A DNA stretch of 64,000 nucleotides from Primula veris (lineage: Eukaryota > Streptophyta > Magnoliopsida > Ericales > Primulaceae): assembly GCA_963682055.1 (NCBI GenBank), contig OY821750.1:28838402-28902401 (forward strand), written 5' to 3'. Under the pieces are notes generated by a model that did not search any database, was not told the DNA's origin, and saw nothing but the letters and a program-made list of their open reading frames with translations. The translations under genes were made by a program, and so were the position numbers. Shown in pieces: positions 16,854 to 26,211 of the stretch. The stretch's first letter is position 1. Every line of letters starts with the position of its first letter.

Positions 16854-17044
16854 GAGGTGCACTTATTGTACTACATTTTTTCTTTTAAAACGCGTGAACC
16901 GTAGATTAAATCTACGGTTTACAGTGATCCACTGTAAACCGTAGATTTAATCTACGGTTTGTATTCATTTAATGCAAACCGTAGATTAAATCTACGGTTT
17001 ACAGTGGATCACTGTAAACCGTAGATTTAATCTACGGTCTGTGT
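16854..17044. repeat. Left terminal inverted repeat of the MULE with four palindromes
   Basis: It starts GAGGTGCACTTATTG and pairs with the reverse complement of the right end, GAGGTGCTCTCAATA. It contains four palindromes with AACCGTA...TACGGTT arms (16897-16919, 16936-16960, 16976-17000, 17016-17040). Acagtg/cactgt linkers that are themselves complementary separate palindromes 1 from 2 and 3 from 4. The right TIR has three such units, so the arms differ by about one 39-bp unit. Confidence 0.88.
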
Positions 17045-17135
17045 AATTTCTGCAGAAATTACACAGTCAGTCCCTGCTTTTCAGAATTACACAGTCAGTC
17101 CCTGTGCCAAAATTACACAGCAGGTCCCTGAAAAA
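17040..17135. repeat. Short repeats next to the left TIR
   Basis: A palindrome centred on ctgcag (tgtaatttctgcagaaatta) is followed by three occurrences of aattacacag plus cagtccctg or caggtccctg. This block is not seen at the right end. Confidence 0.65.
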
Positions 17136-17344
17136 CAGAAACTTACGTTTTTTTTTAAAAAAAAACATTTTTTATACTACATTCTCTATCTTTCTCTCAA
17201 AAACCCCCAATTTTCAACCCAAAAAATCACCCAAATCAATCAACCACATTAACTATCAAATTTATTAACAAAAAACCCCAAATCATCAATCAAACTTATC
17301 CATAATTGAAGGTATATCTTTTATTCTCTAATTTATTATGTATT

Positions 17345-22578: not shown

Positions 22579-25275
22579 ATGAATTACAACTATGGTTATG
22601 ACAACAACCAATGGAATAACAACAACAATGCGAATTCATCCAGTGGCTCAAACGATGAGCTAACTGATTATTCGGAGCACTTTGAAGTTGATGAATTGAC
22701 TTGGGAAACAAGGGATGAAATGCTTGCTGATCTTGCTGATGTGGCTGGAAATTGGGGTTTCATTCTTACGATTCGTAGGTCTGGAGGGGGTGATGGGAGC
22801 AGAACACCGTATGTTGATATTGTGTGTGATAAATCGGGGGTTTACGAAAAAAAGAAACCATCTTCCGTAAAATCAGGTACAAAGAAAAAAGACTGTCCAT
22901 TTTTCATTAAAGGTTACGTAGTTAATGGTGAATGGATGTGTCACGTAGAAAATGGACAACATAACCACCCACCTCCAACTTACCTACAAGGTCAAGCACG
23001 ACGTTCTCGTTTAACCCAAGATGAAAAAGAAATTGTTAAAACTTTAAGGCAAAGTAGTTTTAAAGTTGGTGCAATATTAGAGGCCATTAAAAATCGAAAT
23101 CCTGACAATGTATCAAACACTAAAACGATACATAATTTTTTGGCCGGACTGAAATTTAAAGAACGAGATGGTAGAAACCCGACACAGGAACTTTTTAATT
23201 TGTTGGATAGACATCGCTACACATTCTACTATAATATGAACCCATCAACCCATTGCCTTGAGAACTTGTTTTTTGCACACCCCGATTCTATAAGGATGTT
23301 CAAAGCTTTTCCTGATGTCTTGTTAATGGATTGTACATATAGGACAAACCGTTTTAATATGTCATTTCTAGAAGTCGTAGGAATGATATCAACGAACCAA
23401 ACATATTGTTTAGGTTTTGTTTTCATGAGTGACGAGACACAAGAAAGTTATATATGGGCATTGGAAAAATTTAAAGTTACATTGGAGGGGTGTATACTAC
23501 CTAGGGTGTTTGTAACCGACAGGGAAATGGCCTTATCAAATGCTTTATCCGTTGTTTTTCCCGATTCTCATCATATTTTGTGCACTTTTCATATTGCAAA
23601 AAATGTTTTGAAAAACTGCCGTAAAAAGATCCCTGACGAGGAGTGGCAAACGTTTCTAGATGATTGGGGTTTATTGGTTGATTCTGAGTCGATAGAGGAG
23701 TACAATTATAACCGAACTAATTTCAATTCCTCTTACAAATCGTACCCTGCTGTGATTAAGTATGTAGACAAGCTTTTAAATGATTATGCTGAAAAGTTTG
23801 TTGCATGCTATACCAACCACACAACACATCTAGGTAACAGAACTAGCAATCGAGCTGAACAACAACATGCTAAGCTGAAAAGATCCCTTTCCACAAATAC
23901 TGGCACGCTTGAAACTGTTTGGGTAGAGGTGAATAGAATTCTAGAAAAACAGTTTGAGGATATTAAGACGAAGTTGGATAAATGCAAGTCTTATTTTCCA
24001 CATTCTGAAAAAACGCCTCTATTTATAAATCTTAGGTCGTATATCACACACTATGCCTTTGATTTATTATTCCAAGAACACAAAAAATGTAGTGGCCAGG
24101 CTGATGAGAATTGTTCTTGCGGTTTTAAATTGTCTCACGGTTTACCTTGTCATCATATTATGAGTGAACATATTTTATTCGGGAAGCCTCTTCCTCTAGA
24201 ATATATTCATCCATTCTGGAAAAAATTAGACGTAATTGATGATAATGGGAACACCGATGATTATGGGGTAGAGGGTGATCTAGAAGAGTTTAAAAGTGTT
24301 TATGCTAGCAAAACGAATGTTGAAAAACGGCGTATGAAAACACAACTCCGAGAGATAACCGTACCAGCCAGAACATCCGTCAGTGACCCCGAAGTGAGAG
24401 CAAATAGGGGGAGACCTAGAAAAGGCGACAAATCTAGTAAGAGGGATAAGTCGGGATGGGAGTATATGGAGGAACAGAGTGCTGGTGCTAGTAGGGACAA
24501 GGGTAAAGGCAAGGCGGATGAAACACCGGAGGTAAGGGTAAACCCAACTAGGAGGCCGCGAAACCAGAACCCTAAACCCACCCCCAATAGGCCAACCTTC
24601 CTGTACAGTGACCAAATATGGGTCATGTTACATAGTTACATCGAAACAGTTTATGATGTGCATGGGGATGGTAACTGTGGGTTCCGGGTACTTGCAAATG
24701 CGACGGGTAAACAGAATGGGGAAGATGATTGGTACGCGATAAGATGTGAGTTGTTTCAAGAGCTGCAGCAAATGAAAGGTGTTTATTATGAGCTGTTTGA
24801 GAATCTTGACTTTGAAGCTTACCGGTATGATTACATTTTATCAAGTTTAAATTTTTATCATCCTACAGATCCCGCACCTATTGACAAATGGATGAGATTT
24901 CCGTCTTATGGGTTTTTAATTGCTTCTCATTACAATATGCCAATTGTATTGTTGTCCTTATGGGAAAATCAAAATGGAGGGGTAAACGTGTGGAACAGTA
25001 CTTTTTTACCGCTTTATACTGGTCCGCCTCAGGGAACGACATATTACATCCCGACTGTAATGGTGCTCGTCAACAGTTGTCACTATGCTCAGGTTATTCC
25101 TAAAGAAGGGATCTTCCCAATGCCAGGAATTATAGCACGGTGGGAACAAACACGCACTGAGGCAGCTGCGCCATGGAAGGAACTTTTTCGACCAAATTTC
25201 AAATTATATATGGCGCTGGAAAAGCAATCGGGAAAGAAAAAAGCAAATGAAGAACCTATAGACCTAAGTCCATAA
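22579..25275 (+). CDS. MULE transposase fused to an OTU cysteine-protease domain, 898 aa
   Basis: This is a single uninterrupted frame with four recognisable parts. Residues about 50-135 form a FAR1-type zinc-binding DNA-binding region (KKKDCPFFIKGY, GEWMCHVENGQHNH). Residues about 240-440 form the MULE DDE domain, with candidate catalytic residues D251 (LLMDCTYRTNRF), D314 (VFVTDREMAL) and E427 (SNRAEQQHAKL), plus the C335/H338 pair (LCTFHI). Residues 512-526 form a SWIM zinc finger (C512, C514, C524, H526). After a basic, Pro-rich linker (about 600-675) comes an OTU-like domain with D697-G-N-C700 and H835 (NSCHYAQV). The first part should bind and cut the element ends; the OTU part would cleave ubiquitin chains if active. 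Asn- and Ser-rich residues 1-30 look disordered. All key residues are present and no frameshift is visible, so this gene may be functional. Whether the OTU fold is catalytically active is inferred only from the motif. Confidence 0.95.
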   Translation: MNYNYGYDNNQWNNNNNANSSSGSNDELTDYSEHFEVDELTWETRDEMLADLADVAGNWGFILTIRRSGGGDGSRTPYVDIVCDKSGVYEKKKPSSVKSGTKKKDCPFFIKGYVVNGEWMCHVENGQHNHPPPTYLQGQARRSRLTQDEKEIVKTLRQSSFKVGAILEAIKNRNPDNVSNTKTIHNFLAGLKFKERDGRNPTQELFNLLDRHRYTFYYNMNPSTHCLENLFFAHPDSIRMFKAFPDVLLMDCTYRTNRFNMSFLEVVGMISTNQTYCLGFVFMSDETQESYIWALEKFKVTLEGCILPRVFVTDREMALSNALSVVFPDSHHILCTFHIAKNVLKNCRKKIPDEEWQTFLDDWGLLVDSESIEEYNYNRTNFNSSYKSYPAVIKYVDKLLNDYAEKFVACYTNHTTHLGNRTSNRAEQQHAKLKRSLSTNTGTLETVWVEVNRILEKQFEDIKTKLDKCKSYFPHSEKTPLFINLRSYITHYAFDLLFQEHKKCSGQADENCSCGFKLSHGLPCHHIMSEHILFGKPLPLEYIHPFWKKLDVIDDNGNTDDYGVEGDLEEFKSVYASKTNVEKRRMKTQLREITVPARTSVSDPEVRANRGRPRKGDKSSKRDKSGWEYMEEQSAGASRDKGKGKADETPEVRVNPTRRPRNQNPKPTPNRPTFLYSDQIWVMLHSYIETVYDVHGDGNCGFRVLANATGKQNGEDDWYAIRCELFQELQQMKGVYYELFENLDFEAYRYDYILSSLNFYHPTDPAPIDKWMRFPSYGFLIASHYNMPIVLLSLWENQNGGVNVWNSTFLPLYTGPPQGTTYYIPTVMVLVNSCHYAQVIPKEGIFPMPGIIARWEQTRTEAAAPWKELFRPNFKLYMALEKQSGKKKANEEPIDLSP

Positions 25276-26059
25276 TCGGTTTTTTATTTTTAATTTTATG
25301 TAAATTACTATTTTTTCCAATTTGTTGTAAATTTATATGATGTAAACAAATGTTTAATAAATTTGTTTTATGAAATTTAGTTCTATGAAATTTTGTTGTA
25401 AATTTTGTTGTAAATTTTGTTTAATAAATTTGTTTTATGAAATTTATAAGTTGATATTCATGTTTGCATATTGACTTAATTTCTTTTATGAATTTTATAT
25501 AATTTATGATTGTTTCATTCAAGAAAATTGACGATTGACACCAAATTCACGACTTAGTTAATGTTTCATATTGCGTTATACAAGTGTTAAAAACAAACCA
25601 AATGTACTTCACAAAAATTGACGATTTAGTTAATGATTCAATAAATATCAACTTATAAACTTGACAAAAATATAACATCAACCAAAAACATAAAATTTAT
25701 CAAATCAACTTTTTTTGTGTAAATTTGTGTAACTTTTGTGTTTATTTTGAGAGATTGTTAGAATATTGGTAATTTATTTTATGTAAAATTTTAAAAATAA
25801 GTCATTTTGTTTTTTAATTTGAAAAAAACAAAATGCCTTATTTGAAAAAAATATCAACTTATACACTTGAAAAAAATATCAACTTATACACTTGAAAAAA
25901 ATATCAAATTATACACTTGAAAAAAATATCAAATTTTAAACATAAGGCATTTTTATGTAAAAAAAAAAATCATGTTTAATTTGAAAAAAATATTCAGTAT
26001 TTTAATTTTAATTATTAGAATTTTAATTTTAATTTTTAATTTCAAAAAATCTGTGAAAA
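25276..26059. other. 3' region of the transposase gene, AT-rich
   Basis: An AATAAA motif lies at 25356-25361, about 80 bases past the stop codon, and could serve as a poly(A) signal. The rest is low-complexity AT-rich sequence with a short tandem repeat (separate entry) leading into the right TIR. No further gene is visible. Confidence 0.5.
25841..25936. repeat. 27-bp tandem repeat, about four copies
   Basis: The unit ttgaaaaaaatatcaacttatacac is repeated four times with one variable position (caactt or caaatt) in the 3' region of the MULE. Confidence 0.85.
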
Positions 26060-26211
26060 CACACAGACCGTAGATTAAATCTACGGTTTACAGTTAATCA
26101 CTGTAAACCGTAGATTTAATCTACGGTTTACAGTGAATCACTGTAGACCGTAGATTAAATCTACGGTCTGTGCGTAAAAACAGAAATTTTGTAGTGTATT
26201 GAGAGCACCTC
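26060..26211. repeat. Right terminal inverted repeat of the MULE with three palindromes
   Basis: It ends GAGAGCACCTC. Palindromes at 26065-26089, 26105-26129 and 26145-26169 match those of the left TIR, including the acagt...actgt linkers. Compared with the left arm it lacks one palindrome-linker unit. Confidence 0.88.

What the first reader, a model, noticed from the sequence alone, without database searches (positions are those of the whole stretch)
16854..26211. Complete MULE pairing a plant mobile domain gene with a transposase-OTU fusion
Seen: a perfect 9-bp duplication, GAGGTGC/GCACCTC tips, long TIRs, and two genes in the same direction. Known: PMD genes and Mutator transposases have been linked in plants, and some MULEs carry Ulp1-type protease genes. 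Inference: here one element combines PMD with a deubiquitinase-like domain fused to the transposase, which could be a two-part system that protects the transposase or counters host control.
Basis: partly seen in the sequence, partly recalled or inferred. Interest (0 to 1): 0.9.

Follow-up and report, generated by a model that had tools for sequence, protein, structure and literature searches.

The report
Two-gene plant jumping element
This is a complete plant jumping gene that carries, beside its transposase (which has a ubiquitin-protease-like tail), a second gene related to plant proteins that silence jumping genes, and both genes appear to have been kept by selection while the element spread through the genome.

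Summary
The element at 16854-26211 has GAGGTGC/GCACCTC tips, TIRs and a perfect 9-bp duplication. It carries a PMD gene and an 898-aa transposase whose C-terminus has an OTU fold. The pairing is not accidental. Of 20 other copies fetched as 10-kb stretches from the same genome, 20 carry both genes. Of 11 with both tips in the stretch, 10 have their own perfect 9-bp duplication. Of 40 near-identical PMD hits, 37 have transposase sequence downstream. On internal branches of the family tree, PMD, transposase core and OTU show fewer amino-acid changes than a context-matched control. The window's own PMD copy is broken; 16 of 20 others lack internal stops. Also seen: 21-bp palindromes in both TIRs and before the transposase gene, and a telobox array between the genes. 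PMD-MULE links and OTU-tailed transposases are each already in print or in databases. I found the combination, as a selected two-gene element, in no listing or passage seen. A PMD anti-silencing role is plausible but unproven.

The parts
16845..16853 (.). left target-site duplication CATATGTAA
   Evidence: perfect match to 26212-26220
16854..17050 (.). left TIR with four 21-bp palindromes at 40-bp spacing
17741..18559 (.). 56-bp minisatellite, about 14.7 copies, upstream of PMD
18794..21182 (+). PMD gene: exons about 18794-19652, 19771-19867, 20005-20433, 20532-21182; broken in this copy (frame break near 19085, intron-3 donor lost)
   Evidence: exon model from alignment of 21 copies, no transcript data
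21400..21844 (.). telobox-like (AAACCCTAA) array between the genes
21866..22434 (.). five palindromes ACCGTA-N9-TACGGT upstream of the transposase gene
22579..25275 (+). transposase, 898 aa, single open frame; DDE residues D251, D314, E427
24589..25233 (+). OTU-like domain (residues 671-885) with D697, C700, H835
26057..26211 (.). right TIR with three palindromes
26212..26220 (.). right target-site duplication CATATGTAA

Best explanation
This is one copy of a recently amplified, autonomous-type Mutator-like (MULE) family that encodes two proteins. Protein 2 is a DDE transposase with an OTU deubiquitinase-like tail; it cuts and pastes the element, using the tips. Protein 1 is a PMD protein kept by selection as an accessory factor. 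Most likely it interferes with the host PMD silencing pathway (MAIN/MAIL1 with PP7L), so that the element stays expressed. The OTU tail most likely removes ubiquitin from the transposase or from chromatin and repair proteins at the insertion. The 21-bp palindromes shared by both TIRs and the transposase promoter are most likely the binding sites of one of the two proteins, linking end recognition with control of transposase expression. Shown: anatomy, co-inheritance, purifying selection, recent amplification. Inferred: all biochemical activities and the anti-silencing role.
Against: No expression, methylation or activity data. The 20 copies were chosen for long transposase frames, which biases transposase intactness upward. 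3 of 40 PMD hits had no transposase sequence in the 3-kb stretch inspected and 3 more had only a part of it. OTU shows no constraint on terminal branches (omega 1.00, 1152 of 2000 placements), and its pairwise interval includes 1 (0.47, 0.21-1.09). Pfam does not recognise the OTU domain here. 4 of 20 copies have stops in PMD. L021 and L027 look mosaic, and recombination would blur tree-based counts.
Confidence: 0.48

Rival explanations
1. PMD is a captured passenger (transduplication) that hitchhikes with the element and does nothing for it.
For: Plant MULEs carry captured host gene fragments (PMC13317346, passages). The window copy's PMD is broken while its transposase is open. 4 of 20 other copies have stops in PMD.
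Against: PMD internal-branch omega 0.22, 0 of 2000 control placements. Three introns and the reading frame are conserved across the 20 copies. It covers the PMD domain from end to end and is not a fragment.
Confidence: 0.08
2. PMD is kept for transposition itself (for example DNA binding or complex assembly on the palindromes) and not to counter silencing.
For: Palindrome arrays lie in both TIRs and the transposase promoter. Predicted grape proteins have PMD and MULE domains in one chain (P0044 and P0055). PMD-transposase fusions are reported in grasses and Amborella (PMC5418596, passages).
Against: No PMD DNA-binding activity is known to me (recalled). None of the 26 MULE proteins lists a PMD domain, though a separate PMD gene beside them would not show there.
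Confidence: 0.3
3. The OTU tail is a structural relic without protease activity.
For: OTU terminal-branch omega 1.00, and dN about four times that of the DDE region (0.0168 against 0.0044). Pfam OTU not matched.
Against: D697/C700/H835 kept in 21 of 21 copies. Internal branches constrained (12 of 2000). The domain is kept in plant and rust-fungus relatives.
Confidence: 0.2
4. Fast OTU and PMD-tail change reflects an arms race with host targets and not relaxed constraint.
For: OTU, PMD exon 3 and PMD tail diverge two to three times more than the transposase core (mean pairwise nucleotide distance 0.020-0.029 against 0.009).
Against: No region tested has omega above 1.
Confidence: 0.15

Closest known systems
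PMD-MULE elements of rice, grasses and Amborella (Ikeda et al. 2017, PMC5418596, passages seen)
   Same: A MULE that carries a plant mobile domain; proposed anti-silencing use
   Different: There PMD-C is described as fused to the transposase; here PMD is a separate, intron-bearing upstream gene and the transposase has an OTU tail
Predicted grape MULE-PMD fusion proteins (P0044, P0055, P0059)
   Same: PMD with MULE (P0044, P0055) or MuDR-type (P0044, P0059) Pfam domains in one eudicot protein
   Different: One chain (gene models, not checked); in the PMD tree they do not join this element's PMD, which sits on a long, unplaced branch
MULE-OTU proteins of Camellia, Fragaria and Puccinia (P0003, P0004, P0006-P0008, P0011)
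   Same: MULE transposase with C-terminal OTU; about 25-33% identical in the best local alignment
   Different: Whether a PMD gene lies beside them could not be examined
Ginger1 transposases with OTU or Ulp1 tails (PMC2836005, passages seen)
   Same: DDE transposase with C-terminal OTU cysteine-protease domain
   Different: Gypsy-integrase-type transposase from animal genomes; no PMD mentioned in the passages seen
VANDAL/VANC and Kaonashi (Ulp1) MULEs (PMC13317346, passages seen)
   Same: Multi-gene MULEs with a factor that protects the element from silencing; recognition of short non-coding motifs
   Different: Those are non-TIR MULEs with VANC or Ulp1; this one has TIRs, PMD and OTU

Membership tests
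Mutator-like element (MULE) | 9-bp target-site duplication | tested here: met
   window and 10 of 11 testable copies of 20
Mutator-like element (MULE) | long TIRs | tested here: met
   about 155-195 bp
Mutator-like element (MULE) | MULE/DDE transposase | tested here: met
Mutator-like element (MULE) | FAR1/WRKY-GCM1 zinc-binding N-terminus | tested here: inconclusive
   PF03101 not matched at E<=1; C83, C106, H128 nearly invariant among relatives
Plant mobile domain (PF10536) | Pfam model above cutoff | tested here: met
   99.3 and 53.4 bits in two pieces, 30.8 in a third, cutoff 34.9
Plant mobile domain, clade PMD-C (MAIN/MAIL, MULE-borne) | tree position within PMD-C | tested here: inconclusive
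   long unresolved branch; no labelled PMD-A or PMD-B sequences in the tree
OTU cysteine protease | OTU fold | tested here: met
OTU cysteine protease | catalytic Asp/Cys/His | tested here: met
   D697, C700, H835 in 21 of 21 copies; roles assigned by analogy
OTU cysteine protease | Pfam OTU PF02338 match | tested here: not met
   no match at E<=1 in the window protein or its C-terminal piece; P0007 and P0010 match below cutoff
OTU cysteine protease | ubiquitin cleavage | not testable with these tools
   needs enzyme assay
Kaonashi / Ulp1-MULE | Ulp1 (C48) protease domain | tested here: not met
   Pfam scan of five translated pieces of the two genes shows none
VANDAL/VANC anti-silencing MULE | non-TIR termini | tested here: not met
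   TIRs present
VANDAL/VANC anti-silencing MULE | hypomethylation in trans by the accessory protein | not testable with these tools
   needs methylome of expressing plants

The most novel reading that the evidence does not exclude
The element encodes a complete self-protection module. Its PMD protein is a mimic of the host MAIN/MAIL1 silencing factors that disables or redirects the PMD-PP7L pathway at the element, guided by the ACCGTA-N9-TACGGT palindromes. The OTU tail reverses ubiquitin-based repression or decay, and the telobox array keeps the locus in a reversible Polycomb-type state instead of permanent DNA methylation. This would be a TIR-MULE counterpart of the VANC systems, built from different parts.
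Probability: 0.2. Interest if true: 0.88.

Novelty: new variant of a known kind. Interest (0 to 1): 0.62.

Why it matters
Whether transposon-borne PMD proteins fight the host PMD silencing pathway is only a suggestion in the two papers whose passages I saw (PMC5418596, PMC8616336). Here PMD is a separate gene in a young, high-copy family: by my reading 111 of 150 scored MULE-domain hits fit the family, 65 of them with frames of 900 aa or more. Selection on PMD can therefore be measured, and the gene can be tested apart from the transposase. The shared palindromes give a concrete cis target to test.

Tried and rejected
Accidental pairing: rejected by copies, TSDs and selection. OTU as a false motif match: rejected by fold, profile and triad, despite no Pfam hit. 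Common origin with grape MULE-PMD fusions: not decided; the element's PMD is a long, unplaced branch. Other MULE loci of this genome (L001-L008, eight 3.3-kb stretches): no blastn match to the six gene segments of this element at E<=1e-20, and no OTU or PMD by our profiles. Two surveys were searched for terms: the eukaryote-wide Mutator survey (PMC6446971) holds none of OTU, mobile domain, Ulp, peptidase, protease or accessory; the grape transposon survey (PMC2528002) holds Ulp1 but not OTU or mobile domain. Empty-site comparison in relatives was not done: the own-genome search has no relatives here. Genome-wide counts of OTU DNA, PMD family and palindromes did not complete (tool busy). Babu 2006 (10.1093/nar/gkl888) and PMC9016345 are not held. 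The structure of PMD was not predicted: it spans introns and the frame is broken in this copy.

Full report
OBSERVATION. The element spans 16854-26211. The 9-bp duplication CATATGTAA is perfect, the tips are GAGGTGC/GCACCTC, and the TIRs align over about 155-195 bp. Two genes run in the same direction. PMD (18794-21182) matches Pfam PF10536 in three pieces (30.8, 99.3 and 53.4 bits; cutoff 34.9). The transposase (22579-25275, 898 aa) matches MULE PF10551 at 94.8 bits.

OTHER COPIES. The source genome is 436.5 Mb (unnamed; window at C11:28838402-28902401). A MULE-domain search scored 150 of 1680 candidates. By my reading of that list 111 rows fit this family (288-nt match, 103.2-106.5 bits), 65 with open frames of at least 900 aa. 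The tied 103.3-bit rows run mainly over contigs C1 to C6, so the list was probably cut; counts are lower bounds. I fetched 20 of the 111 as 10-kb stretches, chosen for open frames of 907-926 aa; 20 of 20 carry PMD and transposase. Ascertained the other way, 40 of 738 PMD-exon candidates were scored, all printed at 100% identity after rounding. 20 of these 40 have a listed MULE-domain hit 2.7-4.5 kb downstream, and one is the window copy. The remaining 19 were fetched as 3-kb stretches together with one already-paired locus (L029-L048). 16 of those 19 have transposase sequence: 13 with DDE and OTU parts, L031 and L032 with only OTU sequence, L042 without OTU. Three (L035, L036, L044) have none. 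The total is 37 of 40. Eleven of the 20 ten-kb copies have both tips with 9 bp beyond inside the stretch; 10 have perfect, different 9-bp duplications (8.6-9.5 kb elements), and L027 does not.

THE WINDOW COPY IS PARTLY DEAD. Its PMD gene has a one-base frame break near 19085 and has lost the third intron's donor. Neither lesion is in the 20 other copies. Of those 20, 16 have no internal stop in PMD and 4 do (L013, L016, L021, L025); 14 of the 16 also end at the aligned stop. The three predicted introns are GT-AG in all 20 others.

SELECTION. Pairwise omega is transposase 0.26 (0.17-0.40; 21 copies), PMD 0.27 (0.18-0.38; 20 copies) and OTU 0.47 (0.21-1.09). Parsimony on the family tree, with changes re-placed at random in the same trinucleotide context, gives internal-branch omega of 0.14 for the transposase core, 0.22 for PMD and 0.38 for its tail (0 of 2000 placements each), and 0.41 for OTU (12 of 2000). 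On terminal branches the values are core 0.39, PMD 0.47, tail 0.54 and OTU 1.00. Without the context control the same counts give lower internal values (0.08, 0.21, 0.29, 0.28). Internal branches are mostly lineages that went on to transpose, so all three parts were kept while the element moved (inference). PMD and transposase distances correlate (Mantel r 0.46 for exon 1, 0.65 for exon 3, 0.56 for the tail, against the core). Limits: 20 copies, chosen for long transposase frames; some recombination; window copy left out of PMD and tree counts. The closest pairs differ at 2 of 4695 coding sites, so part of the amplification is recent.

CIS ARCHITECTURE. The pattern ACCGTA-N9-TACGGT occurs 12 times in the window, all inside the element, and never in 100 shuffles. 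Four are in the left TIR, five within about 720 bp upstream of the transposase gene and three in the right TIR, 40 bp apart in the TIRs and for the first three internal ones. The other 20 copies have 9-13 under a looser spacing. The 9-bp core differs between TIRs and promoter. The half-sites are fixed by the search pattern, so their constancy is no separate evidence; a further unit with a changed half-site lies near 22236. The symmetry fits a dimeric binding site (inference). Between the genes lies an array of AAACCCTAA teloboxes: 38 in the window and 24-52 in each of 20 copies. Teloboxes recruit PRC2 through TRB proteins in Arabidopsis (PMC8948837, passage); whether they do so here is unknown.

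MECHANISM. Host PMD proteins MAIN and MAIL1, with the phosphatase PP7L, silence TEs, and TE-borne PMDs have been suggested to counter this (PMC5418596 and PMC8616336, passages). The simplest reading of a selected, separate PMD gene in a spreading MULE is an accessory factor for the element's expression or movement. I favour anti-silencing over a direct transposition helper, but not strongly. OTU and Ulp1 tails on other transposases have been proposed to act through ubiquitin or SUMO in DNA repair (PMC2836005, passages).

NOVELTY. PMD was first described with a rice MULE, and PMD-transposase fusions are reported from grasses and Amborella (PMC5418596, passages); predicted grape proteins with MULE and PMD domains came up here. 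OTU-tailed MULE proteins are in databases. In the held library no paper holds both 'plant mobile domain' and 'OTU', and four hold 'plant mobile domain' and 'MULE'. Of these four I saw passages of three and only the listing of PMC9289625. None of these passages describes this combination, nor does any title or abstract start shown in the listings (20 of 139 shown; 20 of 23 shown; 10 of 19 shown). Subscription papers and Repbase were not searched.

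Noticed in passing
window 21400-21844; copies L009-L028: Telobox (AAACCCTAA) array between the two genes, 24-52 units per copy; possible PRC2/TRB landing site inside a DNA transposon.
   Followed up: partly
window 16898-17038, 21866-22434, 26067-26167: 21-bp palindromes, many at 40-bp spacing, in both TIRs and upstream of the transposase gene, with a variable core.
   Followed up: partly
window 17741-18559: 56-bp minisatellite of about 14.7 near-identical copies upstream of PMD.
   Followed up: no
G000 C11 7.62-7.93 Mb (L001, L004-L007): Cluster of other genes with strong MULE domains, with no DNA match to this family.
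   Followed up: partly
window 32129-35729 (-), 54828-58355 (+), 59985-64000 (+): Open frames that read as Ty1/copia gag-pol remains (label recalled from the translations, no family scan).
   Followed up: no
P0002, P0006-P0008, P0011: Rust-fungus MULE transposases carry the same OTU tail as plant ones; horizontal transfer or an ancient fusion was not examined.
   Followed up: no
P0001: A 98% identical 898-aa transposase on a 3573-base ENA contig, source unnamed.
   Followed up: no
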